Positions 2,985-19,971 of a stretch of 19,971 bases of DNA are shown in pieces. Below the pieces are notes generated by a model that was given only the letters and a program-made list of their open reading frames with translations, had not been told where the DNA came from and searched no databases. How positions within the stretch are numbered: the first letter of the stretch is position 1; the number at the start of each line of letters is the position of its first letter. This stretch comes from Deltaproteobacteria bacterium (GTDB lineage: Bacteria; Bdellovibrionota_F; JAHFAK01), in assembly GCA_023250585.1 (NCBI GenBank), contig JAHFAK010000028.1, forward strand, positions 1 to 19,971, written 5' to 3'. Position numbers and translations under genes: made by a program.

Positions 2985-2997
2985 TAAGATTCTCGAA

Positions 2998-3135
2998 ATG
3001 AACGATGAATTGCAAGTATTAAAAATAGTTGCCCAGCGTCTAGAAGAAGCACATATTCCCTATATGCTTTCAGGTTCGATGGCATTAAATTTTTATGCAG
3101 AGCCACGTATGACAAGGGATATCGATATTGTCTAG
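2998..3135 (+). pseudogene. Truncated nucleotidyltransferase (AbiEii/DUF6036-like) 5' stump
   Basis: A 45-codon reading frame encodes the start of a nucleotidyltransferase: helix LKIVAQRLEEAHIPYMLSGS, then GSMALNFYAEPRMTRDIDIV and a stop. The GS motif, the R-x-T-R-D-I-D-I-V strand and the spacing match families annotated as AbiEii-like or DUF6036 nucleotidyltransferases, as I remember them. An intact member should run well beyond 100 residues. Here the frame ends in TAG at 3133-3135, straight after the two metal-binding Asp residues, and the next gene starts 11 nt later, so the rest was deleted rather than frameshifted. No Shine-Dalgarno precedes the ATG. Probably non-functional debris, unless the short peptide was retained as a leader. 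Confidence 0.6.
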
Positions 3136-3146
3136 GTATTACATAT

Positions 3147-3416
3147 ATGAAAGACACTTCACCTCATATAGAACAAAAATTTCGAGAGATGCTGATGGCT
3201 CGCAGTAGTGAAGAGCGTATGATGATGGGTTTTTCTATGTTTGATACAGCAAAGAAGATAGTTATTAGTTCCATAAAAAATGAAGATCCTGATATCAGCC
3301 TAGAAAAACTTCGCGAGAAAATTTTTTTGCGTTTTTATGGATCTGATTTTTCAGAATTTGAGAAAGAAAAAATACTAGCTTATTTAAAAAAGCATACGGA
3401 TACACAATGTACATAG
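3147..3416 (+). CDS. Small protein of unknown function linked to a nucleotidyltransferase
   Basis: An 89-aa soluble, predicted all-helical protein. I do not recognise a named domain. The pattern RSSEERMMMGFSMFDTAKKI followed by LREKIFLRFYGSDFS resembles small conserved proteins that I recall beside AbiEii-like nucleotidyltransferase genes; that is memory, not a search result. It begins 11 nt after the nucleotidyltransferase stump, so the two may be remains of one pair with this partner still intact. The 3' end overlaps pyrC by 10 nt, making it part of the pyrC-pyrD transcript; translational coupling to pyrC may be why it survived. No strong Shine-Dalgarno. Not a membrane or secreted protein. 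Confidence 0.7.
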   Translation: MKDTSPHIEQKFREMLMARSSEERMMMGFSMFDTAKKIVISSIKNEDPDISLEKLREKIFLRFYGSDFSEFEKEKILAYLKKHTDTQCT

Positions 3417-4453
3417 ACGCCCATACACATTGTCGTGATTTTGAAGAGGCATATAAAGAAACAATACAGCATGCACTTTTGGTCGCTGAGAATTCTGGAC
3501 TTTCCGGAATTTTTGATATGCCAAATACAAAGCCTCCGCTTATTACACGCGCAGTTGTTGAAAGACGTTTAGAACTCGCAAAAAAATGTGCATCGCCTGT
3601 TTTTTATGGAATTTTCATTGGACTAACTAATAAAAAAGATCAGATTAAAGAAGCTGTCGAAACCTTCAATGAGTTTTTTCCGAACAAAGGTGACGAAAGG
3701 GTAGGCGTGATTGGTCTTAAAATGTATGCCGGAAAATCAACGAATAATTTGACTGTTGAAGACATTCTTTCGCAGCGCTCTGTATTTGCAATTCTTGCGG
3801 AATTAAATTTTAAAGGCGTGATATCTCTTCATTGTGAAAAGGAATCTGTAATGAATGAAAAATTGTGGGACCCGAAAAATCCAATTTCACATTGTGATGT
3901 TCGATCCGAAGAAGCTGAAATTCAGTCAGTAAAAGATCAAATTCAATGCGCGCAAGAAACTAATTTTAAAGGCCATCTTCACATAACTCATATTTCTTCT
4001 CCTCAATCGGTTGATATTGTCAATAAGACAAAACATGCATTACGACTATCGAGTGGTGTTACGTTTCATCATCTCTTATTAGATAAAAATGTAATGACGA
4101 ATGAAAAAGGAATTTTTTATAAAGTAAATCCTCCCTTGAGAAGTCCTGAAAGTCGCGCACAGCTTTTTGCAAAATTTAACAATGGTGAGATTGATATTCT
4201 GGAAACAGATCATGCTCCTCATACCTATGAAGATAAGATAGAACGACATTCTTCTGGTATTCCAAATCTCGCTTCATGGCCAAAAGTAATTGAGATACTT
4301 AAAGCTCGTGGAATTGCAGAAAATTTTTTGCAAAAAGTTGCGTTCGAGAATGTAAATAAAATATTCGGCATAAAAATTCCTCGACGAAAGGCAAAAAATA
4401 ATACTATATATGTTAAGGATTATCTTTTTGATCCGTATGAAAAAATAGTATGA
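3407..4453 (+). CDS. pyrC: Dihydroorotase
   Basis: Third step of de novo pyrimidine synthesis: interconverts N-carbamoyl-aspartate and dihydroorotate, in the cytoplasm. Seen in 348 aa: metal-binding H6 and H8 in DAHTHCRD with substrate-contacting R10, DMPNTKPP at 37-44, likely carboxylated K105 in IGLKMYAG, H142 in SLHCEKE, H192/H195 in LHITHIS, and D268 in ETDHAPH. All key positions are present. The protein is compact, beginning almost at the HxH strand without the N-terminal beta-sandwich extension of longer class I enzymes. Related amidohydrolases (allantoinase, hydantoinase) share the fold; the directly following pyrD settles the assignment. Its start overlaps the upstream gene by 10 nt and its stop overlaps the pyrD start in ATGA, implying translational coupling. 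Confidence 0.93.
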   Translation: MYIDAHTHCRDFEEAYKETIQHALLVAENSGLSGIFDMPNTKPPLITRAVVERRLELAKKCASPVFYGIFIGLTNKKDQIKEAVETFNEFFPNKGDERVGVIGLKMYAGKSTNNLTVEDILSQRSVFAILAELNFKGVISLHCEKESVMNEKLWDPKNPISHCDVRSEEAEIQSVKDQIQCAQETNFKGHLHITHISSPQSVDIVNKTKHALRLSSGVTFHHLLLDKNVMTNEKGIFYKVNPPLRSPESRAQLFAKFNNGEIDILETDHAPHTYEDKIERHSSGIPNLASWPKVIEILKARGIAENFLQKVAFENVNKIFGIKIPRRKAKNNTIYVKDYLFDPYEKIV

Positions 4454-5445
4454 ATTGTATTCGAAAATCTTTTGATTCATTCTATGATCTTTTCAGACCA
4501 TTTCTATTTTTTATTTCAAAAAACGATCCACATCGAGCGCATGAATTATTTGTTGAATTTTCTCGAATCATTCATGGACTTAAACTAGAACGATTTCTTT
4601 TAGACAATGAAACAAACTACAACAAAAGAAAAATTACTCTTTCGAATGCAGCAGGATTCAATAAAAATGGTTCAATTTCGCCATTGTTTTTAAAATATCT
4701 GGGATTCGATCGAGTTGTTATTGGTACCGTAACCGGCGAGCGATGGAAAGGAAACTCGCGTCCTCATATTCTCCGTTTAATTGAATCGGAGTCGCTTATT
4801 AATTGGATGGGATTACCTGGAATTGGCGCAAGCCACGTGCGTCGGAATCTTATGAAATTTCAAAACAGTGAAATTCCTATAACTATTAATATTGCTCCAA
4901 CTCCTCATAAACGAGGAGAAGATGCTCTTCGTGATTTAGAAAAAACAGTCGATGCGCTAAAAATATTTTCATGTGTTGACCGCTTTGAACTGAATATTTC
5001 CTGTCCCAATACTGAAGCGGACAGGAATAATTATCATAAAGAATTGAAGTCGCTCATAAATGCGGTTCAGATATCAATGAATGATTATCAAAAACTTTAT
5101 ATAAAATTATCTCCTGATCTTTTAGAGCATGAAATCGATGAAACAGTTTCTGTTATTCAAGCAATGCATGTTGATGGTATTGTGACGACAAATACTACCA
5201 CACAGCATAGCTATCAAAAGGGTGGAGCAAGTGGTGAGCTTTTATATGAACGATCTTTTGCTATTCAAAAGCATTTTTATGAACGGCTCAAAAATACTCA
5301 TGTCAAAATAGTTGCCTGTGGTGGAATTAACAGCTTAACTCGTCTCAATGAGCGTATAAATTACGGTGCCCAAGAAATACAGATTTTTACACCACTTATT
5401 TTCAACGGACCTCGTTTGCTGCGCGAACTACGAGATGACATTTGA
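4450..5445 (+). CDS. pyrD: Dihydroorotate dehydrogenase, class 2 architecture
   Basis: Oxidises dihydroorotate to orotate, the fourth pyrimidine step. Class 2 enzymes use FMN and membrane quinone. Seen in 331 aa: an N-terminal amphipathic/hydrophobic segment (FYDLFRPFLFFISKNDPHRA) like the class 2 quinone-tunnel helices, AAGFNKNG at 67-74, GTVTGERWKGNSRPHILRL, the FMN-contacting K219 in YIKLSPD, TTNTT at 246-250, and ACGGI at 289-293. Oddity: the catalytic-base loop reads ELNISCPNT, placing Cys185 where class 2 enzymes normally have Ser; Cys at this point is the hallmark of class 1 enzymes. The start is coupled to pyrC by a 4-nt overlap. The C-terminal FMN phosphate region is present in the altered form IFTPLIFNGPRL. 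Complete length for the family. Confidence 0.93.
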   Translation: MNCIRKSFDSFYDLFRPFLFFISKNDPHRAHELFVEFSRIIHGLKLERFLLDNETNYNKRKITLSNAAGFNKNGSISPLFLKYLGFDRVVIGTVTGERWKGNSRPHILRLIESESLINWMGLPGIGASHVRRNLMKFQNSEIPITINIAPTPHKRGEDALRDLEKTVDALKIFSCVDRFELNISCPNTEADRNNYHKELKSLINAVQISMNDYQKLYIKLSPDLLEHEIDETVSVIQAMHVDGIVTTNTTTQHSYQKGGASGELLYERSFAIQKHFYERLKNTHVKIVACGGINSLTRLNERINYGAQEIQIFTPLIFNGPRLLRELRDDI

Positions 5446-5460
5446 GAAATTCATTTCTGA

Positions 5461-5533
5461 TGTCATCCCCGAGAAGGTGGGGATCAAGTCTTTTAAACTA
5501 TGTTCCTGGATTCCTGCTTTCGCGGGAATGACA
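5461..5533. repeat. Interspersed palindromic repeat (REP/dRS3-like, two hairpins)
   Basis: Outer ends TGTCATCCCC (5461-5470) and GGGAATGACA (5524-5533) are near-perfect inverted copies. Inside are two hairpins: ATCCCC/GGGGAT at 5465-5484 with an 8-nt loop, and ATTCCTGC/GCGGGAAT at 5510-5529 with a 4-nt loop. The ATTCCyGC...GCGGGAAT core is the widely scattered bacterial repeat that shows up in many genomes and in ORF tails as CHSRESxNP. It lies between the convergent pyrD and GluRS-like genes, covers the last codons and stop of the latter, and may serve as a bidirectional terminator. It is GC-richer than its surroundings. I see no second copy in this window. Confidence 0.8.
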
Positions 5534-6478
5534 GAAATGTACATTCAGTTCATCCAGTTTCTTTGAATTAAAAATTGGTATGTTTTTTTTAAAATGATCA
5601 AGAGTAAAATTTTCTAGAAAATAATTCATATCAAAAGGTTCTTTATTTTTGTCAGGTAGCGATACATAAAGAGACATTAAATAATGTATAATTGCTTCTT
5701 TTTTGTAGTTCGATTTTTTATAAAAACAAAGATCATGAGCTCCATGCCGGCTTGACAGTTTTTCAATTTTTCCTGTTTCATCTTCACCTCGAAGCATAAA
5801 GAAATGTCCATAGTGCGGTGTGGGCAACTCAAGGATTTCTTGAAGCATTATTTCTTTACAGGTATGACTAAAATACTGTTCTGATCGTAGAACATGTGTA
5901 ATGGGCATTAGAGCATCATCAATACACGCAGCAAAAGTATATGTGGGCGCGCCACTTTTTTCTACGATAACAAAATCTCCGAGAGTAAAATCGGGAAAAG
6001 TGATTTTACCCCGAATAAGATCATGATGAATAATTTCTTTTGCGAGTGTTTTAAAGCGAATAACAGGTTGTCGCCCCTCATCTTCGAATTGTTTTTTTTC
6101 TTCGGATGAAAGATTCCTACAGCGTCCATTGTAATGAGGATTCTGCCAATTTTTGAGCGCTTCTTCCTGGGCTTTTTTTAATTCTTCTTCAGTGCAATAA
6201 CAGTAGAATGCTTTATCTTCATTGAGAAGCTTTTCGGTATATTTTTTATAAATAGATAATCGGTCGCTTTGTCGGAGCGGCTCTGCATTACTCGAAATCC
6301 CAAGCCAGACAAGATCTTCTAAATATTTTGTTTCGATATGCGGGCTATCTTCAATATACACAAAAAATTTTCCCGCATTCTTTTGTGCAAAAATAAAATT
6401 TGTGAGAGCAGTGAAAGTTGAATCGAGGCTCAATGGGTCTTTAAGATTAAGTATACAGCGAGTACGAATTTCTTTCAT
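5498..6478 (-). CDS. gltX: Degenerate, truncated glutamyl-tRNA synthetase-like protein
   Basis: Homologous to GluRS over catalytic and stem-contact domains: YIEDSPHIETKYLEDLVWLG (41-60), CYC at 93-95 with C120 of the zinc-finger-like insert, GAPTYTFAACIDDALMPITH (176-195), then PIFNSKKLDELN (301-312). But HIGH is missing: the matching stretch (RCILNLKDPLSLDSTFTAL) has SLDS at 17-20. The second signature reads KLSSRHG (240-246) in place of KLSKRHG, and the fourth zinc-site residue is Asn122 instead of His. The protein stops at 326 aa, without the roughly 150-residue anticodon-binding domain; the last 11 residues are repeat-encoded. A short GluRS lacking that domain recalls glutamyl-queuosine synthetase, but that enzyme keeps HIGH. 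No strong Shine-Dalgarno. Inference: pseudoenzyme or decaying paralogue, so the symbol marks family only; a functional gltX should exist elsewhere. Confidence 0.8.
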   Translation of the reverse strand: MKEIRTRCILNLKDPLSLDSTFTALTNFIFAQKNAGKFFVYIEDSPHIETKYLEDLVWLGISSNAEPLRQSDRLSIYKKYTEKLLNEDKAFYCYCTEEELKKAQEEALKNWQNPHYNGRCRNLSSEEKKQFEDEGRQPVIRFKTLAKEIIHHDLIRGKITFPDFTLGDFVIVEKSGAPTYTFAACIDDALMPITHVLRSEQYFSHTCKEIMLQEILELPTPHYGHFFMLRGEDETGKIEKLSSRHGAHDLCFYKKSNYKKEAIIHYLMSLYVSLPDKNKEPFDMNYFLENFTLDHFKKNIPIFNSKKLDELNVHFCHSRESRNPGT

Positions 6479-6732: not shown

Positions 6733-7296
6733 ATGAAAAAAAACTATATATTAATCATCTATATCTGTGTGTGCTTTGGTTTTCAATATGCTCATGCTTA
6801 TGAGGAATTACCAAATACGTGTAATCTTTTTGATGGCTGGAGACCAGAAGATCGAGTTAGTCATATTTTGAATAATCCACTTCTTGCAGCTCATTCAATA
6901 TTTCAAACAGTACAATTGTCGTTAATGGGAATTAATTCTTCTAAAGCTATCCAAGAGTTGAAAGAACAGTACCCTAATAATTTTATAAAAGATTTAGATA
7001 ATTTTGAGAATGCATTAACAATACTTTACTTCGATACATCTCTTTCTCATCCTTATTTTTTACTTATTAAGCAAAATATACTTCAGAAATTTGAAGAGCT
7101 CAGAAAATTTTTCTTACATACATCATTTGATCAATTACAAGACTTAGAATTAGTTACTCGTAAGCTTGCGGAGCTTAAGAAAGATCTTCGTCAGCATAAG
7201 CAATGGAGTCTCGAAATAAAAACTCACCTAAAAGAACAACCCCAAAATTTTCCTTTTGAGTTAGATACTCAACCGCATTCAGTACCTTTACACTAA
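6733..7296 (+). CDS. Small secreted protein of unknown function
   Basis: 187 aa; I recognise no family. Residues 1-22 form a clear signal peptide (MKK, hydrophobic core, then FQYAHA with cleavage before YEEL), so it should leave the cytoplasm. The mature protein is predicted largely helical, with charged helices around residues 110-160 and a Pro/His-rich tail. It has a single cysteine, Cys30, in PNTCNLF, about 8 residues after the predicted cleavage site; the three large secreted proteins downstream have a comparable N-x-C element. GGGG at 6719-6722 is the likely ribosome binding site (spacing 10), within the GGGGTTA motif that recurs upstream of the neighbours, and is touched by a CTGTT/AACAG hairpin (6705-6719). 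Candidate promoter at 6577. Probably a small member or partner of the exported cluster. Confidence 0.85.
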   Translation: MKKNYILIIYICVCFGFQYAHAYEELPNTCNLFDGWRPEDRVSHILNNPLLAAHSIFQTVQLSLMGINSSKAIQELKEQYPNNFIKDLDNFENALTILYFDTSLSHPYFLLIKQNILQKFEELRKFFLHTSFDQLQDLELVTRKLAELKKDLRQHKQWSLEIKTHLKEQPQNFPFELDTQPHSVPLH

Positions 7297-7313: not shown

Positions 7314-7463
7314 TTATTTAGGTAAAGTTGACATCCACTCATCAATAGCCTTTACCCCTGGCTCAGTAAAAATGGCCTCATGTCCGCCCTACTCTATATG
7401 ATAAATCTCAAGAATAATGCAACATTTATGTAACACCTTCTGAGGCACTACACAAATATGTAA
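7314..7463 (-). pseudogene. Alpha/beta-hydrolase C-terminal relic
   Basis: The minus strand reads about 50 codons resembling the end of an alpha/beta-hydrolase. It runs VVPQKVL, then ILEIYHIE, an in-frame TAG (7389-7391), GGHEAIFTEPGVKAIDEWMS, and a natural-looking end STLPK with TAA at 7314-7316. The G-G-H followed by an acidic helix matches the catalytic-histidine loop and last helix of that fold. Upstream it runs into the promoter of the next gene, so everything before it is gone. The interrupting stop and missing N-terminus make it non-functional. Assignment rests on a short motif. Confidence 0.4.
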
Positions 7464-7470
7464 GTTTTTC

Positions 7471-7498
7471 TTGACAACTTTACGCACTATGATACAAG
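7471..7498 (+). promoter_or_regulatory. Sigma70-type promoter of the 763-aa gene
   Basis: TTGACA at 7471-7476, a 16-nt spacer, then an extended -10 reading TGA-TACAAG (7490-7498). The same arrangement, with GGGTCATGT directly after it, recurs at 9926-9953 upstream of the paralogous 892-aa gene, which supports function. The predicted transcript has a leader of about 60 nt. Confidence 0.65.
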
Positions 7499-7539
7499 GG
7501 GTCATGTGGGATAAAAAAAATAGTTTCTATAAGATTCTA

Positions 7540-7564
7540 TAACCTGAATAATAATAATGGGTTA
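7540..7564 (+). promoter_or_regulatory. Possible hairpin containing the ribosome binding site of the 763-aa gene
   Basis: TAACCTG (7540-7546) can pair with TGGGTTA (7558-7564), five Watson-Crick and two G-T pairs, around an AT-only loop. GGG at 7559-7561 is the only Shine-Dalgarno candidate before the ATG at 7568, so the stem would partly hide it. The same TAACC/GGTTA pairing is possible upstream of the 892-aa and 1166-aa genes. Confidence 0.35.
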
Positions 7565-7567
7565 GAA

Positions 7568-9859
7568 ATGATACGAAAAAAGTTCTATTTTAGTTTTTAT
7601 TTTTTCCTCGTTATATTTCTCATTAACAATAGTCAACTTAAAGCAGTTTGGCATACTAATCTTTCTACTAATAAGTGTATTCCTTTTGATTCCATTGGTG
7701 GCAAGGGTAGAAAAAAACCAGTAAGTACTACATTAGAAAAAGTAACAAAAAAATCTCAACAACCCTTTGAGTCATTGGGTGTGCGAGGTTTTATACAGAC
7801 CTTTGGTTCTGATACATCAGGAACGACCACTTTAGAGCATGAACTTAACGGAGATTTTGATTGGGGTACTAAATTTTTTATCATGCCGAGCCTTGAGGCT
7901 GCTCAGAAACATGATAGAGAGCGTACTCAGAACCTTGGTATTTGGCAGAAGGCAATGTATCTTATTACTGATGATGATTTTCAGCTCAGTGATCAATATA
8001 TTTCAAAGAGTGGAAAGCCAGAAGACATTAAAGAAGCTAAAGAAAAATTTGAGCATATTGTTCAGAAAAATGGTGTTATTCTGTTTGACCCCTATGGAAG
8101 ACAACAGCATTATGCTTGGGAAGAATTTCAAGGGAGGCTCATTCTCGATGATTTAGAAATTGAACCTGAGGGAAAAGGAAAAAATAGACAACTCTGCTAT
8201 AGACTACTTGGCTGGTTTAATCCCGTTGTGAGAGCTGTTATATATTATAAGAATATTCTCGAGGGGAAAAAAGGAGAAGAATTAAGGAAAATCGGAAATC
8301 GTCTAAAAAATGATGGCTACACTGTTATGGTAACCGCTGATTTTCAAGGCTCTTTTCTTTTTCTCGGTCATCAGAAAAGATTTGGACCTGCTGGTGAACT
8401 AATAAATCGATTCACGATTGAAAAGTATAGAGATGGTATGACGGAAAAATATAGAGAGGATCGTGCGTACTCGCTTGAGTTGTGGCAAGATATTGAAGAG
8501 TATGCGAAACAAAATCCTGATATTATGGCACTTGATAAAGCTCACATCGTTTTTCCTATAAATGATGAGGCAGGTAATTCAAAAAAAATCTATAAAGATG
8601 GTTATTATATCGTTACGCACCAAGGAATTCAGGAAGTTCAAGATCCCCTTAATTTTTTAGTTGAAGAATTTATCACACCTCTTGTGATAAAAAATGGAAG
8701 AGTTCTCATGGGCGGCATTGTTGGGAGCAAAGCAGGAAGGTTATTTCTTGCCGATGTGGTATTTTATCAACCACATCGTGAATTGGATCCTGTTCTCTTT
8801 GCCGATCTCATTCAAGCGCGCGCTCAGGAACTTAAAGCTGATCGAGTTGAGAGACGCTATCAGGCACTTCTTAAGGATAAATTAGCGGCAACGTTACAAC
8901 TGCGTGTCAGTGAACAACAAGCAATAATTGATAGAGAATATAATGCACGAGTTAAGGAAGATGCCGATAAACGTTTTGAAGGATACCATACCAGTGGGTT
9001 AAGCTCTGATGAATATAGAGAACTCAGGAGAAAGACTCGAGATGAGGCTAAGGCTCAGATACGAAAACCTGAAGTAGATAAAAAATCAATTCAAGCTCAG
9101 ATAGAGGTCGAGTTACACGAACGAGCTTCTTCCGAAGAAGTACAGAAGCGAATACAAAAGCACTATGGAAGGCAGATTAAAGAAGAGGTTGAAAAGCGTT
9201 TTTTAATGGCAATACAAGACAGAACCCTAGAGAAAAAAAGAGATAAAGATGAAATTAAAAGAATCCGAGATGAGCTTGAAGCTTCGGTAAGAAACGAAAT
9301 AGTTGATCGAGGCAAAATAGAAGCCGACATAGAAGATGAACTGCGCGAACAAGCTCGTACTGTAGGAGCGAGAAATATAGATATACCTAAGTATGGTAAT
9401 TATGCCCTTGCGGATTTTCTCTATAAAAACTTTGGGATACGCTTCTTTGATGTTCAAGTGGTATCTAATTTTTCGGGAGATTCAACTGCAATAACTATCC
9501 CGAAAAAAGCTCCTCAATCTCAAGAAGAAGAAGCAGCATTTTTGAAACTTGCATATCGTATGTTAGAAGAGCATGTGAGAGAGCAAGTATTGGAAACATT
9601 GCCAGAGGGGAGGCAAGATGATCCTCCATATATAGAAGCTAAAATAGGTTTTGCATTGAATGAAGCAAAAGCCGAATTTTTTGCCAACTATACCACCATA
9701 AAAGATGAAGAAGGCCGATATATAGGATTTGAAGAGTTTCTTAAATCTTTACAAAGCCACGAGGGAGAAAATGCTATTGTTCTTGCAGGCAAAGCAAAAT
9801 GGGTAGAAAATGGACAGGGAGATATTGTATTGGAATGGTCATTTCCCGGAAAAAAATAA
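7568..9859 (+). CDS. Large secreted protein, paralogue A of the exported cluster
   Basis: 763 aa, no family I can name. Signal peptide 1-26 (cleavage after LKA), then a Cys at 37 in TNKCIPF. Layout: module 1 around 96-180 (FDWGTKFFIMPSLEAAQ ... YLITDDDF ... NGVILFDPYG), module 2 from about 249 (GYTVMVTADFQGSFLFLGHQ ... SLELWQDIEEYAKQNPDI), and a highly charged helical region 411-598. That region contains two tandem units of about 70 residues starting near 455 and 529, each ending in an 'I-x-x-x-I-E-x-E-L' helix. A terminal submodule at 598-632 (ARTVGARN ... ALADFLYKNFGI) and a helical tail finish it. The same order is found in the 768-aa protein at 12731. It has its own promoter at 7471 and a GGGTTA ribosome binding site. 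Predicted exported; surface or host-directed role is inference only. Confidence 0.88.
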   Translation: MIRKKFYFSFYFFLVIFLINNSQLKAVWHTNLSTNKCIPFDSIGGKGRKKPVSTTLEKVTKKSQQPFESLGVRGFIQTFGSDTSGTTTLEHELNGDFDWGTKFFIMPSLEAAQKHDRERTQNLGIWQKAMYLITDDDFQLSDQYISKSGKPEDIKEAKEKFEHIVQKNGVILFDPYGRQQHYAWEEFQGRLILDDLEIEPEGKGKNRQLCYRLLGWFNPVVRAVIYYKNILEGKKGEELRKIGNRLKNDGYTVMVTADFQGSFLFLGHQKRFGPAGELINRFTIEKYRDGMTEKYREDRAYSLELWQDIEEYAKQNPDIMALDKAHIVFPINDEAGNSKKIYKDGYYIVTHQGIQEVQDPLNFLVEEFITPLVIKNGRVLMGGIVGSKAGRLFLADVVFYQPHRELDPVLFADLIQARAQELKADRVERRYQALLKDKLAATLQLRVSEQQAIIDREYNARVKEDADKRFEGYHTSGLSSDEYRELRRKTRDEAKAQIRKPEVDKKSIQAQIEVELHERASSEEVQKRIQKHYGRQIKEEVEKRFLMAIQDRTLEKKRDKDEIKRIRDELEASVRNEIVDRGKIEADIEDELREQARTVGARNIDIPKYGNYALADFLYKNFGIRFFDVQVVSNFSGDSTAITIPKKAPQSQEEEAAFLKLAYRMLEEHVREQVLETLPEGRQDDPPYIEAKIGFALNEAKAEFFANYTTIKDEEGRYIGFEEFLKSLQSHEGENAIVLAGKAKWVENGQGDIVLEWSFPGKK

Positions 9860-9864
9860 CATTT

Positions 9865-9882
9865 AATAAGGCATTATTTTTT
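9865..9882 (+). terminator. Weak AT hairpin with T-run after the 763-aa gene
   Basis: AATAA (9865-9869) pairs with TTATT (9874-9878) around GGCA and is followed by more T residues to 9882, 5 nt after the stop codon. The stem has no GC pairs, so termination would be weak. The new promoter at 9926 fits separate transcription of the next gene. Confidence 0.25.
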
Positions 9883-9925
9883 ATGACATTTATCATACAT
9901 AATGCAACATATATTGATTTATTTC

Positions 9926-9953
9926 TTGACATCTTTACTAAGTATGATACAAA
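9926..9953 (+). promoter_or_regulatory. Sigma70-type promoter of the 892-aa gene (copy of that at 7471)
   Basis: TTGACA (9926-9931), a 16-nt spacer, and extended -10 TGA-TACAAA (9945-9953). It is followed by GGGTCATGT and, further down, by TTCTATAACCT, both matching the leader of the 763-aa gene. The two regions are evidently duplicated or conserved. It lies in the 154-nt gap after the 763-aa gene. Confidence 0.65.
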
Positions 9954-9986
9954 GGGTCATGTAGAAGAAAGAGTGCCTACATTCTA

Positions 9987-10010
9987 TAACCTAAGTAGAA
10001 TAGGGGGTTA
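9987..10010 (+). promoter_or_regulatory. Possible hairpin overlapping the GGGGG ribosome binding site
   Basis: TAACC (9987-9991) can pair with GGTTA (10006-10010); an alternative CCTA/TAGG pairing uses the adjacent bases. GGGGG at 10003-10007 is the ribosome binding site for the GTG start at 10014 (spacing 6). It reads as a G-T-wobble version of GGAGG pairing to the 16S tail, and the stem would cover part of it. Confidence 0.35.
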
Positions 10011-10013
10011 GAC

Positions 10014-12692
10014 GTGGTTCGAAAAGTTAGTTCCCTCCAATTATTGATTTCTTTTTTCTGTGTTAATATTAATCAAAATGTTTATGCAAATACAACAAAC
10101 TGTGGATCTGGGCTATTTTCTTTTCCCACACACAGAGAAGAACAATCAACTGTTTTGCCTTCCCTGAAAAATCCTCGAAGCTTTATTGTTACTAAAATAG
10201 ATGCAAAAGATCCTCAATTGAAAACATTAGAATTTGTTCTTGATGGAGGCAAAACCATACAACTCGTCGTTGATGCTCAGTTAGTTGATTCTCAATTATT
10301 TAAAGGATCTGAGCCTATTGTAGAGTCTTATGGAAATCCTATACAGAAGCTGGATGTAGATGTAGATAGTGGCTTCACAACGTTGAGAAACGATAAGGGA
10401 AAAGTTGTTGCTTTAGTTGATTTTAGGCCAATTCCTCCAAGTAATGATATTAATGCATTATCGAGAGAATACTGGGCAAGATATCTTGATCCTAAAAAAA
10501 TTGGCCAAGAGTTAGCTCTTAAGCGTACTGAAAATCTTCTAGAAACTAAAAGCCAATTGGAAAAAGCTGGCGAAACAGCAACAGATTCTTTCTCCGACAT
10601 AAAGAACTTTCTCCAAGAACATGCTATACAAATTATTGATCCGGCTGAGTTACGAAAGAGAATTATTATCTTCATAGCAAAAGTTCTTGACCCTTCATAT
10701 GGTATACCAGCTGTAACAGAAGTAGTAGAGCCACAACCTGAACCCTCATTTGTGTTCGGTACAAATTATCTTGGAAATATGATTAATGCATTAGAAAAAG
10801 CAAAACAAGAATCAAACTTTAGTGATGGAAAAATTACCCTTGATATGGTTGAAGGATTTATAGAGGAGCTGAGCCGGGGTCCTCGAGGTAACGTGTCACC
10901 ATTTCTTGATCCAAAGTCTATTTCAGCTAAGGCTAAATTAGGCTTAGGAACAATTGATTGGGCGGACAAGTTCTATTTCGTTACGAGTGTAGAAGAAGCC
11001 TTACGAGTATATACTGATCTTTGTATGAATGATTCAGCAACGGGTGAACTACGATTAGATCAAAATGTTTCAGGAATTTTTTTCATCGTTGATCAAGCTA
11101 CTCAAAAAAAATTGTATGATAATGATGGTAGTTTACCTCAGGAAGAATATGCTAACTATTTTATTAACAACTCGAACAATGGTGGCTTTTTCTTTGACGG
11201 AGGATCATTGGATCGAGCACGTAATACCTATACTTTAGGCATGCATAAAATGTCTCCAGAAACATTACGAAGATATATTAATGCTCAAGAACTTCAGCGA
11301 TTAACAGTAAATGGAGTGCCAATCTTATATAGCAAAGGATTACGATTCCCGCCGTTTTTAGGTGTATTTGAATATAGGGATTATCGAGGAGTTAAAAAAA
11401 CCGATAATCCCTATTATATGTATCGATCATTAGCTGAAAAATTTATTAAGATGGGTTTAGTTTTTAAGATTAATACTCTTTCTCCTACGGAGGCAATAAA
11501 TTACCTGGTAACTCAACAGCATGAGCATGGTGTCGGTACACGCTATGCAACAGATGAAAAAGCCGTAGACGATTTGGATGGAAACACGGGGCGTATAATG
11601 ACGATATCACAAGGAGTTTATTCTAAATTTCAAAAAGCCGCAGAAGAAGGAAGATTAGTTACCTTTGAAGCTTGGCATATGCTCCCTACTGGTAAGCTTC
11701 AACTTGTTGGTTTTAATATTGGAGAAAGAAATGAGAGAGATGGCCGACTCATAACAACGGAGAGCTTTTTCTATGAAAAGTTTAAATATATGCGACCACG
11801 AGGAGGAGCAGCACGAAATCTAATTGAACTCTATAATTCTGATGCTATTACTATAATGAGAGTTCTTAAATTTTTAGCGATTGAGGAACTACATCAGTTA
11901 GGGATAGACCTTCAAAATGTCGGAATGGTTACAAAAAATTCTGATGAAGCTGGTGCCAAATACAGACCTAGAAGGGAAGTTGTCCCTCAATTCTGGAAGC
12001 TTGCTTATGGTGATCCAGTAAAATTACCCAACGAGCCTAATGTGCTCGAATTAATTGAAGTTAGTAAAAGTGAAGATCCGAAATATCTGAAGAAAGATGT
12101 AAAAGAAAATCAGGCGCCAAACACTCCACTCGGTAGTTGGACGAGCAAACTAAAAACAGCACAAGAGTTATACGGTATGGGATTTTCTGTAGTATTGAAT
12201 CCAAAAGAAATTACTCCTCGAACTTTACAGAATACTTTAATTGAAGAACGCTGGAATGAACATGGAGATGTCTTTGAAACTATCCCACGTGACTATGGCT
12301 TTTTCTCTGTGGCTGTATATCATGACTTTATTGACACTAACGGAAATGTACAACGTCGATTGGCTGTAATACTTGCCGGTTACGGTACAGAAAATGGAGC
12401 CTATACCTTAAGGTCATTTTATGATCAAGACAACTATGGCAAATATCTTTTTGTAAAAAATAAGCCTAATTCTAATGAGGATGACCCTCTTCGTAATAGC
12501 TCAATAACAGGAGAAAATGAAAGTCCAAGAAAATTAGCGAGCCTTTCTGTTTGGGCTTTAGCAGATCGATTACATGATTTAGGGATAAAGTATGAAGTTC
12601 AGAAAGATAATTCTATATATATTTCTCAACTATCGAGAAATGTACTGGCAACTCCGCGACTAAATGGAAAGTGGGAAATTCCTGAAAAGTAG
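10014..12692 (+). CDS. Large secreted protein, paralogue B with an internally duplicated module
   Basis: 892 aa, starting at GTG and placed by GGGGG at 10003-10007; no named family. Signal peptide 1-25 (cleavage after VYA), then Cys30 in TTNCGSGLF. An N-terminal beta-rich segment at 55-140 is followed by module 1 at about 313-395 (TIDWADKFYFVTSVEEAL, GIFFIVDQ, GGFFFDGG). A second module then occurs twice, near 480-645 (MGLVFKINTLSPTEAINYL, EEGRLVTFEAWHM, LAIEELHQLGIDLQNV) and near 721-870 (MGFSVVLNPKEITPRTL, FFSVAVYHDF, VWALADRLHDLGIKYEV). Unlike its two paralogues it lacks the long charged helical repeats. It has its own promoter at 9926. The next gene follows after 38 nt, so the two are probably co-transcribed. 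Predicted exported; no catalytic motif is visible, so a structural or binding role is as likely as an enzyme. Confidence 0.88.
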   Translation: MVRKVSSLQLLISFFCVNINQNVYANTTNCGSGLFSFPTHREEQSTVLPSLKNPRSFIVTKIDAKDPQLKTLEFVLDGGKTIQLVVDAQLVDSQLFKGSEPIVESYGNPIQKLDVDVDSGFTTLRNDKGKVVALVDFRPIPPSNDINALSREYWARYLDPKKIGQELALKRTENLLETKSQLEKAGETATDSFSDIKNFLQEHAIQIIDPAELRKRIIIFIAKVLDPSYGIPAVTEVVEPQPEPSFVFGTNYLGNMINALEKAKQESNFSDGKITLDMVEGFIEELSRGPRGNVSPFLDPKSISAKAKLGLGTIDWADKFYFVTSVEEALRVYTDLCMNDSATGELRLDQNVSGIFFIVDQATQKKLYDNDGSLPQEEYANYFINNSNNGGFFFDGGSLDRARNTYTLGMHKMSPETLRRYINAQELQRLTVNGVPILYSKGLRFPPFLGVFEYRDYRGVKKTDNPYYMYRSLAEKFIKMGLVFKINTLSPTEAINYLVTQQHEHGVGTRYATDEKAVDDLDGNTGRIMTISQGVYSKFQKAAEEGRLVTFEAWHMLPTGKLQLVGFNIGERNERDGRLITTESFFYEKFKYMRPRGGAARNLIELYNSDAITIMRVLKFLAIEELHQLGIDLQNVGMVTKNSDEAGAKYRPRREVVPQFWKLAYGDPVKLPNEPNVLELIEVSKSEDPKYLKKDVKENQAPNTPLGSWTSKLKTAQELYGMGFSVVLNPKEITPRTLQNTLIEERWNEHGDVFETIPRDYGFFSVAVYHDFIDTNGNVQRRLAVILAGYGTENGAYTLRSFYDQDNYGKYLFVKNKPNSNEDDPLRNSSITGENESPRKLASLSVWALADRLHDLGIKYEVQKDNSIYISQLSRNVLATPRLNGKWEIPEK

Positions 12693-12720
12693 GTAAAAGA
12701 CTATATTACAAATACTATTT

Positions 12721-12726
12721 GGGGGT
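12721..12726 (+). promoter_or_regulatory. Ribosome binding site that fixes the start of the 768-aa protein
   Basis: GGGGGT ends 4 nt before ATG 12731. This favours that ATG over an in-frame TTG at 12719, which would put the G-run inside the coding region and add four residues before the signal peptide. ATTAC (12705-12709) could pair with GTAAT (12725-12729), a weak analogue of the hairpins upstream of the neighbouring genes. Confidence 0.6.
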
Positions 12727-12730
12727 AATT

Positions 12731-15037
12731 ATGTTTCTACGAACAATAACTCGATCACTGCTCCTTGTGATGGTTTTGGGCACACTGAGTAGTGTCTTTG
12801 GTTTTGACAAAAATAATTGCGGGACTATATGGTTTAATCCATCTTTCATTTCTTTAGACCTCTCCGAATCAGGTATAAGAACACCAAAAAAACTTCCCGA
12901 TCAAAGAAAAGGTCTTGGATGGAAAAGGTATGTGACTGGTTCAACGAAGGATCCTGAGTTAGCTACATTCTATGAAGGCACAGGAGGATTTTGGTTTCAT
13001 GGAGTGCGTGAGTACGGTGTCGAAACCGAACAAGAAGCGCTTATGCATGAAATTTACTGGGCACTCACTGAAAATGTAGTACGAGGAATTTATTTTCTTA
13101 CTGATTATAAGATTGATCCACATACAATGGTTCAAATTAAAAATACCGAAAAAAGCAATAAAACAGAAGCAGATAAGATGAGAGCTGCTGTCCTCGAAGA
13201 AACAAAAGCTGATTTTTATAAAGTTATTGAAACACAAGGTGTCTTTTGGTTTACCTTTACTGATGAAATAGATCAAGCATTTGCTACTATTAGGGAACTT
13301 GAATTCAAAGATCAAAAAGAAGAAGCTGATACAATTCGTAAGGAATTAATTGAGAAAGTATCGATAGCTTATGCTGAACATATCGAATCAAAAGGGCAGA
13401 AGCCTTTTATCTATGGTGAAAAGAAAACAGCATCTGCGGAAGAAGTACGGAAAATATTAAATAATCCTGATGATTTTACAATTGCCCCATCATTTAGCGA
13501 TGATCCTTCGCGAGATAAATATCCTTACCGTCTTGTTGCGTCAGGATATACTTTTCCTGGACAACGAGGCGTTATTCTCTATGAAGATGCCATGAAAGCA
13601 AAATTTGTAGAAAGAGCAGATAACCTTTTGAAAGAAGGAATTACTGTTACAGTTAACCAACATCTTCCGGTATCTCTTTTCTTCCTTGCCCATTACAGAG
13701 AAGGTGAAGGTGCAGTCAGAGGCATAACAAGTAAAGATCCAAATCGTTATCGAGATCCTCATGTAGTGAATAAAGCAAAACGTAATTTAGAAGAAGGTCG
13801 TCTCTATGCTTTTATGTCATGGCAAGATATAGATTCTTATATGAATGAAAATCCGGATGTCGCTCGTGCATATTTAAATAGTTCGTATGCTGATGATTCA
13901 GAAGGACAATATATAATTTATCATGATGGAAAAATCGAAAAAGTCAATCTTGATTATTTGGAATACGAAAACTTTGTTCTTCCTCTTGTCGTGCGAATGA
14001 ATACTGTTATCAACCCTGAGACTGGTGAAACCGTAGAGAAAAAACAAGTACTCATGGCTGTTATCAAAGGTGTTCAAATGGGAAATATTTTTGGTCCTGA
14101 TGCAGTAGGTTACCAGCCAAGTAGTCGCGAATTAGATAGGGAGTCATATAGTGGTGCATTTCGCAATGAGATACAGCGACGATATGAAATGCTTAAATCT
14201 GAAAGGGTACAATTGCCTGATCGGGGAAAAATGGCCCAGGACCGTTTTATTCTGTATTATAACGAAGAAAAAAACACATATGAAAATCATTTAAAGTTAG
14301 AAGCAGAAAAGCTTTTTGCTAAACGTTATGATTCAAGGTTGTTGGAAGAGTATAAAAATCCAAAAACTACTATGGGTAAAGAAGAGAAGAATCAGATAAA
14401 GCAGCAGTATGTGGCCATGCGAGATGAAGTTAAACGAGTAATTGGGGAGTTTACCGTTGATGAAGAAACACTGCGAGCTCGTATAGAAAAAGAGCTTGAT
14501 CAAGAATCAATGAGATTTAACATGTTGGTCAATGCTCGTATAGTTGAGAGAACACGAGAGATAAAGACAGAATATGAAACACTGATAAAAGCAGAATCAC
14601 AGAGACGTTATAATGAGGAAGTCAGAAGGTTACAAAGCCAAGGAACTATAATCGAGGGAAAACAGATAGGCGATCTAAAAAAGACCATTGCTTTACAAAT
14701 AAAAAGTGAGATTAAAGAGCCTAACGTTGATAGAAGCGCTATTGAAAAAGAAATAGAAGCAAAGCTCTGGGATGAGGCTCGTACTGTAGGTATTCGTAAC
14801 CTTGACCTTGCGCATATGCTCAATACGGCGATGTCGGATATTTTACATACACGTGGTATTGATGTGGTTGATACTCACATGACGAGTCCTTTTTCAAGTA
14901 AACGAGGTGCAAAATATATTCCTGCTGATTATTTCCAAGAGCGGTTAGATAAAAACCCTCGTGAGAAAGTCGTACTTACTCCAGGCCAATGGACTCCTTC
15001 ATGGTGGAAAAAGAAGGCCCCAGAGGAGAGAAGGTGA
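12731..15037 (+). CDS. Large secreted protein, paralogue C of the exported cluster
   Basis: 768 aa, same architecture as the 763-aa protein. Signal peptide 1-24 (LLLVMVLGTLSSVFG), then the only cysteine I can find, Cys30 in KNNCGTIWF. Module 1 from about 85 (GGFWFHG, TEQEALMHEI, RGIYFLTDYKI, QGVFWFTF); module 2 from about 302 (GITVTVNQHLPVSLFFLAHY, then MSWQDIDSYMNENPDVA). YQPSSRELD near 461 corresponds to YQPHRELD in paralogue A. A charged helical region at 465-680 has two repeat units near 515 and 611, including IKEPNVDRSAIEKEIEAKL, which matches IRKPEVDKKSIQAQIEVEL in paralogue A. The terminal submodule is EARTVGIRNLDL ... MSDILHTRGIDVVD. The tail is shorter and basic. Follows the 892-aa gene by 38 nt, probably on the same transcript. 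Function unknown; export is the firm prediction. Confidence 0.88.
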   Translation: MFLRTITRSLLLVMVLGTLSSVFGFDKNNCGTIWFNPSFISLDLSESGIRTPKKLPDQRKGLGWKRYVTGSTKDPELATFYEGTGGFWFHGVREYGVETEQEALMHEIYWALTENVVRGIYFLTDYKIDPHTMVQIKNTEKSNKTEADKMRAAVLEETKADFYKVIETQGVFWFTFTDEIDQAFATIRELEFKDQKEEADTIRKELIEKVSIAYAEHIESKGQKPFIYGEKKTASAEEVRKILNNPDDFTIAPSFSDDPSRDKYPYRLVASGYTFPGQRGVILYEDAMKAKFVERADNLLKEGITVTVNQHLPVSLFFLAHYREGEGAVRGITSKDPNRYRDPHVVNKAKRNLEEGRLYAFMSWQDIDSYMNENPDVARAYLNSSYADDSEGQYIIYHDGKIEKVNLDYLEYENFVLPLVVRMNTVINPETGETVEKKQVLMAVIKGVQMGNIFGPDAVGYQPSSRELDRESYSGAFRNEIQRRYEMLKSERVQLPDRGKMAQDRFILYYNEEKNTYENHLKLEAEKLFAKRYDSRLLEEYKNPKTTMGKEEKNQIKQQYVAMRDEVKRVIGEFTVDEETLRARIEKELDQESMRFNMLVNARIVERTREIKTEYETLIKAESQRRYNEEVRRLQSQGTIIEGKQIGDLKKTIALQIKSEIKEPNVDRSAIEKEIEAKLWDEARTVGIRNLDLAHMLNTAMSDILHTRGIDVVDTHMTSPFSSKRGAKYIPADYFQERLDKNPREKVVLTPGQWTPSWWKKKAPEERR

Positions 15038-15171
15038 AATGAACCTTACGAAGAGAACACAACGTAAGCCTCTTCGACAGTCAAGCATTCAATTTCTTAT
15101 TCTTAAGATCCATTCTTGTATTAGCCACAATTATTTTCACATTAATTTCCCAACAAAGGAGGTATACAATT

Positions 15172-15198
15172 ATGAAGCTCATGGTATCAATGTGCTAA
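15172..15198 (+). other. Eight-codon ORF behind a strong Shine-Dalgarno
   Basis: AAAGGAGG (15155-15162) is the closest match to the standard ribosome binding site that I saw in the window, and lies 9 nt before ATG 15172. The frame encodes only MKLMVSMC before TAA at 15196-15198. It lies in the 221-nt gap between the 768-aa and 1166-aa genes. It may be the leftover start of a deleted gene or a translated leader. An overlapping 59-codon frame (15039-15218) behind AAGGTG is also open but looks unremarkable. Confidence 0.25.
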
Positions 15199-15258: not shown

Positions 15259-18200
15259 ATGGGGTATAAAAAGTTATTCTTAGGGTTATTTTTTTTGATT
15301 GTTAGCTCGATTACACTCTTGTCAGATAGTCAGAGTTCTATAATTCCAAGATTAAAGGACATAAAGAAAAATCAATTTGATGCTGCTGGTACAATTATTG
15401 ATTCTAAGGATTATCTTTTTACCATTCTCGATATTGAAGATAAGGACGTGAGTGATGGAGAAAATCTTGGCGATTATATCGAAGAAGAAATAAATAAAAA
15501 ACAAATCGCTCGTCCTGCAAGTTATGTCTATACTATTCCCCAAGATGTCTGCCTCAATTACATTCCTGACATGCAAGAACTTATTGAAAAAAAAATAAAA
15601 GAGGAATGCGTGGGGAAAACAGGTAATGCTTATAATAAATGCAAAATTTCAGTCCAATGTACGAGGAATGTTAACTGGAGGATTGCAGTACTTGATGATG
15701 GTAAAGGACTACTTTTTTATGATACATTTCATACTCATTTTTTTCATTTGCCAATAGAGGTTCGTGCTTTACGATCAGATAGACGCTTTGCTCAGTCAAA
15801 GGATTATATCTTTTTAGCACCTTTTGATGATTCGCAAGAAGGTTTTTATATGTTTCGGAAAATTGATATTGCTACGAATCTTTTTAGGAATAACAATATT
15901 CCTTATTATTTTTTTCCTCTGCCGGGAATACAGGGTATTTCATCTATTGCACCTGAGATTGAAAAAAAAGAGGATTCAAAGAAAACAAAGCCACAACAGA
16001 CTGTAAGAAGAGAAAAAGAGCTCGAAGCAAGAATAATAGAAAAGTGTAAGGATATGAAAGATGAGAAATATGAAACATGCCACCAATTTAAAGGTAATGA
16101 GAAAGAGTATGAAGAATGTAAGAGATTGAAAGATACTCAGTACGAAGAATGTAAGCTCTTATATACAAATAAGATAGATATGTTTCAACAAAAAGAAGTG
16201 GCTATCCGAGTTTTTCATACAAAAACCAATAAAGAAGGTATTAGTGAAAAAGATTCTGAACGTATACCAATACAAGAACTCGAACAATATGTTTCCATAA
16301 GCATTCTCAGTAATTATATTGATAAATTGGCTCATGAAGATTTGAGTCCAGGTGATGAGGAAATCGAAAAATATCGTATATTCACTCAAGAACTTTTGAA
16401 AATTCAAGATGAGATGGCTGCTGAAATTAATTCAATTTTCACTAATCCTCCTCTAGGATCGATTGATTGGGCTAAGTTTAATCCTCATGGTGAACTTACT
16501 CAAGAGAATGTTTTTGATGCTTTTACTACCGCCTTGGATCGTTTTAATGATAGCAAAACAAAAAATGCTATAGAACAGAAATACGATATAAAAATAGCCT
16601 CTCTTTTGCAAGACTTTTATGCAAAGTATCAGAATGATCACCGTAAGATCTATATTGCTCGGTATTCCCCGGAAGAACTTTTCGATCCCTCAATTGTAAC
16701 ACCAACAGCTCGATGGGAGAAATTAAACTATACCTGGTTAAAAGTAGGAAAAAATGAAGGAGCAGTTATTGATCCTGATGCGGGTTTTGTACATGCGGTT
16801 GGAATGTTACGGAAAGCATGGAGGTTTAGTCGATCAAACATACGGCTCGATGAAGCGCTTAATGCTAACCCCGATGATGCAGAAAGTGCTCATAGCAGTG
16901 CGATGTGGAGTATAGGACTTCCTTTGGGTATACTTTTTGCCAGTCCCCTTGCCCTTAAACCGCTTTTAAAATATTTATACGTAAGAAAGCTTGTTACGGT
17001 AGGGTATTATAAGGGTAATAATGTGTGGGATGTTATGGCAGGAGCTGGATTCATATATCAGCGGATTACAAATGGTAGGCAAATTATGCTTCTTATTCTT
17101 GATCTCCTTGCCGATGCCCTTGACAATCAATATCTTTTTCCGGGAATTCTTAAAAAAGAAATTAAGACCATCAAAGAATCGATAGAAAAACAAGTAGCAG
17201 ATAACTTAAAAAATGTGACCGCCAAGGAACTCCTCATTCAGTCACAGGGATTAATAGACAATTTAACTAAACAACTTGCAAACTGCACTGGTGATGAAAT
17301 GCGTACGATACTTACAGATGCTATAACGGATTTGCAGGGTAATTATGATACATTAAGAGCCGAAATCATTGGAGAAGTTGAAAAATTGGTAAGGATACTT
17401 CTAGGAGAAGAAGGAGTTGCTACATCGCTCGAATATATGAGAGAGATAGAATATCACACAGGACTTTCAAAGTTACGAGTCGTTTCGCCTATTTCTGATG
17501 CAGCAAAAGAAATAGTACAAAGTATTAATTTAAAAGCATTACAAAAGAAGTCATTTCTTACAGAATTAGGTAGATGGCAGAAGGATGGATTAAACAATTC
17601 AGAAATTGCAGCTAAAATTTTTGATGACTATCTCATAAAATATGATAACGCGTATTTAACGAATAGCTCAGCCCGACGTTCATTACGAGAACGATTAAAA
17701 GCACTACGGGGACTTGCTACAATACAAAATATTAAAAAACTTCCTACAAGAGCCTGGAGTGGAAGCTTGGAATTTGGAGTAAACCGTTTTAAAGGTGTGT
17801 ATACGTGGCTTTACAAACTCTTTTATAAAGTCCAGGAAGATACTAAACTACGATTTATTTCAGGTAAAGATATGGAGCGTTCTTTACCGCTGATGCTCAT
17901 TGATGTTATTGCGACTATTCTACCCTCAGAATTAATCGTACGATCATACTACTCAAACGAAGCAAATCCTTTGGATTCAGAAACATCGTTTTGGTCGAGT
18001 TATGAATATCCCTATACCATGACCCATACTGAATGGATACAACAGGATATTAATTTTCGTTTATGGATGAATATTACGCTCGGAATGGTTACAAAATCAA
18101 TACGCTTTCATAACTTAGAAGAAGGAGTAAATAAACTTGCCGGGGCATTGAAGCTTAAATTTTCTGAAAGCTTTGGAAGATTGGATGATGAAATAATTGC

Positions 18201-18764: not shown

Positions 18765-19971
18765 ATGTTTTCTTCTATGAGCATATATAAGGTAATTTTT
18801 CTTTTATTGTTTATAGCGGTTCCTTCATTACTTTTTGGGAATGGAGAAGATCAGTATCTCGGCTTAGAAGATCTCAAAGACATTACCGTTGAAATACCTC
18901 TTTCTGTTGAGAATCCAAAAGAAACTCTTACCGTAACCCTTGATTCATTGATAAACCCAATACACCAAAGTAGACTCGCTAAGATTCAAAATGATCTTAA
19001 AAAAGAGAGAAAGGTATCCAGAGGGAGAATGGAAAGCGCTCGCTTTATATTCTCAGTTATTGTGGTAATAGCTCTTGATGATCTTTTAATTAAAAAGCGA
19101 TTTAAAAACTGGCGTAAGATTCGCATTACCTTTGGCATTGCTAATCTATTCTTATCATGGCTTTTATCTGATTGGATCTTTAACTATGGAGATCGTGTAA
19201 CAGGTGCTACTGAGTATTTTATTAATGATATGACGGAGAGTAAAATCAATGAAGGACTAGATTTATATTCTGGTTTACTTGAAATCTATTCGGACGCAGA
19301 TAATGGAGATCTTGAAAGTGATGATTTTAAGAAACTTATAGAAAAATCATTTAAAAACCCTTTTCTTAATCAACTCATGCGAAACATTATTGCTGATTCA
19401 GGTATTTATTCCGTTGATAGTAATTTAATTAATCAAGATATTGATTTTCAATCTCAATACAATACTAATCTTCTTCTTGAGTCATATTTCATTGATAAAA
19501 ATTTCAGTCAGGATATATCTACAAGTAGTCTTGTCAATACCTATCCTGGAATTCGCTATCTTCCCTATGCTTCAGTTCCCTTACATGCGTACCTTAAAAA
19601 GAGAAACCTTTCGTTCTTGATTCCTCCGAGTCTGGAAGAGCTCAAGCCCTTTCCCATGCTTGGACAGTTTGGAAGAGAAACAGTTGCTCTGATGGCGCTC
19701 ATGTACTTTCCAGAGTTAATGGAGGATGAAGATTCTTTTTCTTTAGTCCCTATTCTCTCTTCTGTTGCGCTATCCTACGCCACATCGAGAGTTGCCTTAG
19801 CAGGAGTATCACGTTTAATAAAGGCCTATAAAGTATTTCGGGCAGGCTCGAAAGCAGCAGCTGTTGGAGAAGCAGCTACTGGTCCATTAGGTTGGAAAGT
19901 ATTTATTCTCAATCAACTTGCAGTAATCACTGCATCGATGCTTTTAGAGGGTCCAATTACTCAATGGTATA
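18765..19971 (+). CDS. Membrane protein with signal peptide, 3' end beyond window
   Basis: An open frame from ATG 18765 runs without a stop to the window edge (402 codons seen). It starts 5 nt after the preceding stop; GGAG at 18751-18754 gives a 10-nt spacing. Residues 8-24 form a signal peptide core (KVIFLLLFIAVPSLLFG). Likely membrane segments follow near 91-108 (ARFIFSVIVVIALDDLLI) and 120-141 (RITFGIANLFLSWLLSDWIF), with more hydrophobic stretches close to the edge (SLVPILSSVALSYATSRVAL; VFILNQLAVITASMLLEG). The intervening part is charged and probably soluble. I recognise no family. Tight spacing and similar build suggest it works with the 1166-aa protein in the envelope. Second in-frame ATG at 18777 is a less likely start, lacking its own ribosome binding site. 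Confidence 0.85.
   Translation, partial: MFSSMSIYKVIFLLLFIAVPSLLFGNGEDQYLGLEDLKDITVEIPLSVENPKETLTVTLDSLINPIHQSRLAKIQNDLKKERKVSRGRMESARFIFSVIVVIALDDLLIKKRFKNWRKIRITFGIANLFLSWLLSDWIFNYGDRVTGATEYFINDMTESKINEGLDLYSGLLEIYSDADNGDLESDDFKKLIEKSFKNPFLNQLMRNIIADSGIYSVDSNLINQDIDFQSQYNTNLLLESYFIDKNFSQDISTSSLVNTYPGIRYLPYASVPLHAYLKKRNLSFLIPPSLEELKPFPMLGQFGRETVALMALMYFPELMEDEDSFSLVPILSSVALSYATSRVALAGVSRLIKAYKVFRAGSKAAAVGEAATGPLGWKVFILNQLAVITASMLLEGPITQWY

What the first reader, a model, noticed from the sequence alone, without database searches (positions are those of the whole stretch)
7568..15037. A family of three tandem paralogous secreted proteins with shuffled modules
The 763-, 892- and 768-aa proteins all have signal peptides. 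All share module 1 ('[D/G]W..KF[YF]...S.E.A' then 'G[IV][FY]F[LI].D' then a 'G[VG]F[FW]F' strand), module 2 ('G[IYF].V.[VL]N/T' then a 'SL.FL'-type strand) and the submodule 'L..[DE].L[HY]..GI...[DE]V'. None matches a domain I know. Tandem duplication with module gain and loss points to a diversifying exported family, plausibly surface or host-interaction factors of an intracellular bacterium.
Basis: partly seen in the sequence, partly recalled or inferred. Interest (0 to 1): 0.75.

Follow-up and report, generated by a model that had tools for sequence, protein, structure and literature searches.

The report
Tandem orphan exported protein family
Three neighbouring genes in a bacterium from a barely sampled phylum encode exported proteins that descend from one ancestor, resemble no protein we could find elsewhere, and sit in a larger block of duplicated exported and membrane protein genes; what they do is still unknown.

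Summary
The three genes are real and related, but not equally closely. P1 (763 aa) and P3 (768 aa) are clear paralogs (28% identity over 532 columns, E = 1e-35). P2 (892 aa) is a far more diverged third member: three collinear patches each exceed shuffles, and a P1/P3 profile scores it 11.1 bits against a shuffle maximum of 2.5. P1 and P2 also share an upstream leader found nowhere else in the genome. P1 and P3, not P2, carry two charged repeats of about 80 aa; P2 has its own N- and C-terminal parts.

The array is larger than reported. The downstream pair of large membrane-type proteins (P4, P5) has a second copy on contig C89, probably adjacent, and P5/P5' look recently homogenised.

No relatives were found in the family libraries, PDB sequences, plasmids, phages, viral contigs, 85,000 genomes (peptide-seeded scans) or the one other genome held of the phylum. 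Structure prediction failed (pLDDT 30-35).

Best reading: a lineage-specific tandem family of Sec-exported envelope or surface proteins. Intracellular life and host interaction are not shown.

The parts
7390..7567 (+). P1 leader, homologous to the P2 leader; 38-nt core at 7470-7507
   Evidence: 64-nt block 78% and 40-nt block 73% identical to the P2 leader; core found only upstream of P1 and P2 in the genome
7568..9859 (+). P1, 763-aa exported protein: modules 1 and 2, two charged repeats, module 3
   Evidence: paralog of P3
7745..8092 (+). P1 module 1 (aa 60-175)
   Evidence: p = 6e-4 with P2 module 1; alignment
8153..8827 (+). P1 module 2 (aa 196-420)
   Evidence: p about 1e-16 with P3 module 2
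8876..9361 (+). P1 two tandem charged, probably helical repeats of about 80 aa (aa 437-598)
   Evidence: repeat 1 against repeat 2 p = 5.5e-7
9338..9637 (+). P1 module 3 (ARTVG.RN..., L[HY]..GI; aa 591-690)
   Evidence: p = 6e-9 with P3, 0.002 with P2
9875..10013 (+). P2 leader, homologous to the P1 leader; core at 9925-9962
10014..12692 (+). P2, 892-aa exported protein (GTG start), diverged third member: own N-terminal part (aa 30-284), modules 1-3 without the charged repeats, own C-terminal part (aa 701-892)
10866..12113 (+). P2 shared region (aa 285-700; modules 1, 2, 3 in the same order)
12731..15037 (+). P3, 768-aa exported protein, closest to P1; begins 38 nt after the P2 stop codon, so probably cotranscribed with P2
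12896..13318 (+). P3 module 1 region
   Evidence: p = 0.026 with P2, 0.095 with P1; weak
13484..14158 (+). P3 module 2
   Evidence: p about 1e-16 with P1, 8e-5 with P2
14234..14794 (+). P3 two tandem charged repeats
   Evidence: P1 against P3 repeat pairs p = 7e-4 to 6e-6; P3 repeat 1 against repeat 2 only p = 0.009
14759..15034 (+). P3 module 3
   Evidence: p = 6e-9 with P1, 8e-5 with P2
15137..15198 (+). 55-nt block (15137-15191) identical upstream of P4 and P4', with AAAGGAGG and an 8-codon ORF (15172-15198, MKLMVSMC)
   Evidence: its 37-nt core has only two copies in the genome
15259..18759 (+). P4, 1166-aa exported or membrane protein; paralog P4' on contig C89; link to P1-P3 by position only
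   Evidence: 31% identity to P4'; TM-like segments
18765..19970 (+). P5, membrane-type protein cut by the contig end; paralog P5' on contig C89
   Evidence: 57% identity, last 121 nt identical
6733..7296 (+). P0, 187-aa small exported orphan protein upstream; membership in the locus uncertain
   Evidence: no family above cut-off

Best explanation
The locus is a lineage-specific tandem array of Sec-exported proteins. An ancestral gene encoding modules 1-2-3 was duplicated with its leader. One line (P1, P3) carries two charged, probably helical repeats between modules 2 and 3; the other (P2) lacks them and has its own N- and C-terminal parts. The array continues with a separately duplicated pair of large membrane-type proteins (P4-P5, P4'-P5'). 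Shown here: common descent of P1 and P3, likely descent of P2, the shared leaders, the duplicated P4-P5 pair, near identity of the P5/P5' 3' parts, and no relatives in the collections searched. Inferred: the proteins leave the cytoplasm by the Sec route, oligomerise through the repeats, and work at the cell envelope or surface as binding or structural proteins, perhaps together with P4/P5, with expression of P1 and of P2-P3 coordinated through the shared leader.
For: P1/P3 homology. P2 by three collinear patches and by profile. Leader shared by P1 and P2 only. Charged repeats. Signal-peptide-like N-termini in P0-P5 and TM-like segments in P4/P5. P4/P5 paralogs. Exact identity of the last 121 nt of C79 with P5', and about 121 nt at the C89 end before the first mismatch, as expected for assembly breaks in a repeat. 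No database family and no homologs.
Against: No fold, enzyme motif or experiment supports any function. The link of P1-P3 to P4-P5 is by position only. No outer-membrane or surface anchoring signal was recognised, so P1-P3 could equally be soluble periplasmic proteins. Pairwise BLAST between P2 and the others is at the edge (E = 0.005 and 0.024).
Confidence: 0.5

Rival explanations
1. They are host- or prey-directed effectors or adhesins of an intracellular or host-associated bacterium, diversified by selection from the host.
For: Exported, orphan, tandemly duplicated, strongly diverged proteins, with sequence exchange in the adjoining P5 pair. The genome has a distant TLC-family transporter.
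Against: No eukaryote-like domain or secretion-system gene was seen in the window. The TLC match is weak (44 bits, 412 aa). Strong divergence of orphan genes needs no host. The organism's lifestyle is unknown.
Confidence: 0.2
2. P1 and P3 are paralogs, but P2 is an unrelated exported protein whose leader came by recombination and whose module resemblances are chance matches between aromatic-rich strand-like segments.
For: Direct BLAST of P2 is marginal. hhalign with a thin profile finds only 37 columns, probability 3.9. The strict motifs fail.
Against: Three separate patches lie in the same order, each with p between 6e-4 and 8e-5. The profile score of 11.1 bits exceeds every reported shuffle. 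The leader similarity runs into the start codon and first codons.
Confidence: 0.15
3. The array is a remnant or cargo of a mobile element or phage.
For: Orphan genes clustered beside housekeeping genes; a dispersed repeat lies nearby at about 5461-5533.
Against: No meaningful PHROG, phage, plasmid or viral-contig match. G+C content equals that of the flank and of C89. No integrase, tRNA or viral gene was seen.
Confidence: 0.05

Closest known systems
Tandem lineage-specific outer-surface paralog arrays (for example OMP-1/P44/MSP2 of Anaplasmataceae, Pfam Surface_Ag_2; Pmp proteins of Chlamydiae, Pfam Chlam_PMP)
   Same: Tandem exported paralogs, strong divergence, sequence exchange between copies (seen here in P5/P5'); the comparison of organisation rests on general knowledge
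   Different: No match to these families in Pfam at E up to 10; no recognised beta-barrel or autotransporter part; only three members
Clusters of orphan exported proteins in poorly sampled bacterial phyla (for example Babela massiliensis, PMC4378268, a literature lead that was not read)
   Same: Signal peptides, no recognisable domains, paralogy within the genome (general knowledge)
   Different: No homolog was found in any searched genome; the host belongs to a phylum with two genomes in the set searched, and no relation to Babela was tested

Membership tests
Known protein families (Pfam, NCBIfam, PHROGs, PADLOC) | Profile match at or near the curated cut-off | tested here: not met
   Best for P1-P3: DUF695 E = 0.044, 14.5 bits against a cut-off of 23.1; nothing in NCBIfam or PHROGs better than E = 0.03; none in PADLOC at E up to 0.01
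Surface_Ag_2 (OMP-1/P44/MSP2) or chlamydial Pmp arrays | Family sequence profile | tested here: not met
   No such match for P1-P3 in Pfam at E up to 10
Surface_Ag_2 (OMP-1/P44/MSP2) or chlamydial Pmp arrays | Outer-membrane beta-barrel or autotransporter domain | tested here: inconclusive
   No profile match and no C-terminal aromatic residue by eye; structure predictions had pLDDT 30-35
One paralogous family P1-P2-P3 | Sequence similarity above chance linking all members | tested here: met
   P1-P3 E = 1e-35; P2 by collinear patches, profile and leader
One paralogous family P1-P2-P3 | Common fold of the shared modules | tested here: inconclusive
   Two AlphaFold2 models with mean pLDDT 35.1 and 29.7; Foldseek on the first gave nothing at E up to 0.001
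Sec-exported proteins | N-terminal signal peptide | tested here: inconclusive
   Basic start, hydrophobic stretch and plausible cut sites in P1-P3 by eye; hydropathy peak above threshold in P1 and P3 but not in P2; no dedicated predictor available

The most novel reading that the evidence does not exclude
A previously undescribed exported multi-protein envelope apparatus of a barely sampled bacterial phylum: P1-P3 and the duplicated P4-P5 membrane pair form one system with new folds, whose copies diversify while their leaders, including a conserved element or tiny upstream ORF, are kept under constraint for coordinated expression.
Probability: 0.15. Interest if true: 0.7.

Novelty: new member of a known kind. 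Interest (0 to 1): 0.38.

Why it matters
The proteins make up an orphan family in a phylum represented by two genomes in the set searched. If the array proves to be an envelope or surface system, it would be a starting point for learning how this lineage builds its exterior and meets other cells. The contrast between well-kept leaders and strongly diverged proteins is a testable sign of shared regulation or of sequence exchange between copies.

Tried and rejected
Structure prediction of the P3 (with P1) and P2 (with P1 and P3) shared regions: mean pLDDT 35 and 30, unusable; Foldseek on the first gave only chance hits. Family searches in Pfam, NCBIfam, PHROGs, PADLOC and PDB sequences: nothing. 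Homologs elsewhere: none. The collection scans need short near-exact peptides, so distant relatives could be missed; only P5 was searched over 386 genomes and P4 over 59. An internal repeat of module 2 in the P2 C-terminal part, suggested by eye, was rejected (p = 0.49). P4 or P5 as relatives of P1-P3: no profile support. Rfam: no match. Promoter and terminator scans gave fewer sites than shuffles and were not used. A pairing across the P1/P2 leaders rests on two sequences and is left as a lead. One literature search gave no close parallel. The organism could not be named.

Full report
What is there. The window is the whole of contig C79 (19,971 bases) of a 2.24-Mb, 164-contig assembly, 96.7% complete. 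Asking for its phylum returned only one other genome, of the same class but another family. Positions 1-6478 hold ordinary genes: glutaminyl-tRNA synthetase, an MNT-type nucleotidyltransferase, a nitrilase-family protein, dihydroorotate dehydrogenase and a GluRS-like protein. From 6733 on, the large same-strand ORFs all encode exported or membrane-type proteins without a known domain.

P1 and P3. BLASTP gives 28% identity over 532 columns, E = 1e-35, and the N-terminal halves score 29 standard deviations above shuffles. The match is strongest in module 2 (p about 1e-16) and module 3 (p = 6e-9); module 1 alone is not significant between these two (p = 0.095). Between modules 2 and 3 both carry two charged repeats of about 80 aa, each ending in a VD...I...IE..L-type segment (P1 repeat 1 against repeat 2, p = 5.5e-7; P1 against P3 repeats 7e-4 to 6e-6; P3 repeat 1 against repeat 2 only 0.009). 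Their composition suggests long helices, which is inferred.

P2. Direct comparison is at the edge (E = 0.024 with P1 and 0.005 with P3), and hhalign with a two-sequence profile is weak. Cut to the shared region, the three proteins align collinearly, and each module gives separate support: module 1 with P1 p = 6e-4; module 2 with P3 p = 8e-5; module 3 with P3 p = 8e-5 and with P1 p = 0.002. A P1/P3 HMM scores P2 at 11.1 bits, and no reported shuffle exceeds 2.5. P2 lacks the charged repeats and has about 250 residues before and 190 after the shared part. I take P2 as a diverged third member, with about 85% confidence.

Leaders. The DNA upstream of P1 and P2 is alike (64 nt at 78%, 40 nt at 73%), with a 38-nt core CTTGACAnCTTTACnnnnTATGATACAAnGGGTCATGT. 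The core occurs twice in the window with zero expected by chance and, as a 36-nt pattern with up to three mismatches, nowhere else in the genome. The similarity runs to the start codons and first codons. P3 starts 38 nt after the P2 stop codon and has no such leader, so it is probably transcribed with P2. The leader thus links P1 with P2 while the coding sequence links P1 with P3; duplication of leader plus gene, followed by sequence exchange or unequal divergence, would account for this. The core may be a promoter or regulator site, but its TTGACA and TATGAT are only 11 nt apart, so a standard sigma-70 reading does not fit. RNAalifold pairs two conserved leader segments around a variable loop; with two sequences this is only a lead.

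The wider array. P4 (1166 aa) has a 31%-identical paralog P4', and P5 (402 aa, cut by the contig end) a 57%-identical paralog P5' (730 aa), adjacent and in the same order on contig C89. The last 121 nt of C79 match P5' exactly, and the outer end of C89 holds a second copy of the P5 3' end that matches P5' for about 121 nt before the first mismatch. That is what an assembler leaves on the two sides of a collapsed repeat. As no third P5 was found, C79 and C89 are probably neighbours, which would give P0-P1-P2-P3-P4-P5-P4'-P5'. The near identity of the P5 3' parts, against about 65% in the first 450 nt aligned, points to recent sequence exchange between the copies. Upstream of P4 and P4' lies an identical 55-nt block with a Shine-Dalgarno sequence and an ORF of 8 or 9 codons; its 37-nt core is present only at these two places.

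Distribution. No relative of P1/P3 was found by peptide-seeded scans of the genome collection (84,980 species) and of viral contigs, nor of P4; none of P5 in 386 genomes, of P4 in 59, of P3 in plasmids, of P2 in viral contigs or phages, or of P2, P3 and the three-protein alignment in the phylum-mate. These scans can miss remote relatives, and the phylum is hardly sampled, so 'orphan' means orphan in these collections.

How it may work. Signal-peptide-like N-termini without a lipobox suggest soluble exported proteins. The charged repeats would suit oligomer formation, and the strand-like modules would suit binding or structure. P4/P5 have several hydrophobic segments and could be membrane partners, but only position connects them to P1-P3. 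All of this is inference. Structure prediction gave no help.

Host interaction. Nothing in the locus shows an intracellular life. A 412-aa protein elsewhere in the genome matches the TLC transporter family at 44 bits, a hint at most. I therefore place host interaction below a general envelope or surface role.

Verdict. A real, diverged, tandem family of exported proteins without known relatives, inside a larger duplicated locus. As a kind, tandem exported paralogs are familiar from many bacteria (general knowledge); the family itself is new, and the kept leaders above strongly diverged genes are its most unusual feature.

Noticed in passing
window 5461-5533: Dispersed palindromic repeat with about a dozen near-full copies and more partial ones in the genome. 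It lies at the 3' end of the GluRS-like gene (5498-6478, minus strand), whose 326-aa product ends in CHSRESRNPGT and shows only the catalytic-domain match.
   Followed up: partly
window 15137-15198; L009 17719-17783 (minus strand): Identical 55-nt block upstream of P4 and P4' with AAAGGAGG and a tiny ORF (MKLMVSMC / MKLMVSIRS), although the P4 proteins are only 31% identical.
   Followed up: partly
window 19650-19971; L009 11875-13300 (minus strand) and 17839-18053: P5 and P5' are nearly identical in their 3' parts but diverged in the 5' part, suggesting recent gene conversion; both contig breaks fall in this repeat.
   Followed up: yes
window 16045-16152 (P4 residues 263-298): P4 has a charged segment with roughly evenly spaced cysteines (C263, C274, C287, C298) that P4' lacks.
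   Followed up: no
window 7325-7400: The minus strand could encode a short fragment resembling the C-terminal end of an alpha/beta hydrolase, perhaps a gene remnant; read by eye only.
   Followed up: no
window 1805-2104 (minus strand): MNT-type nucleotidyltransferase, PADLOC PDC-S09 (E = 2.9e-30), a kind often found in toxin-antitoxin pairs; no partner gene was looked for.
   Followed up: no
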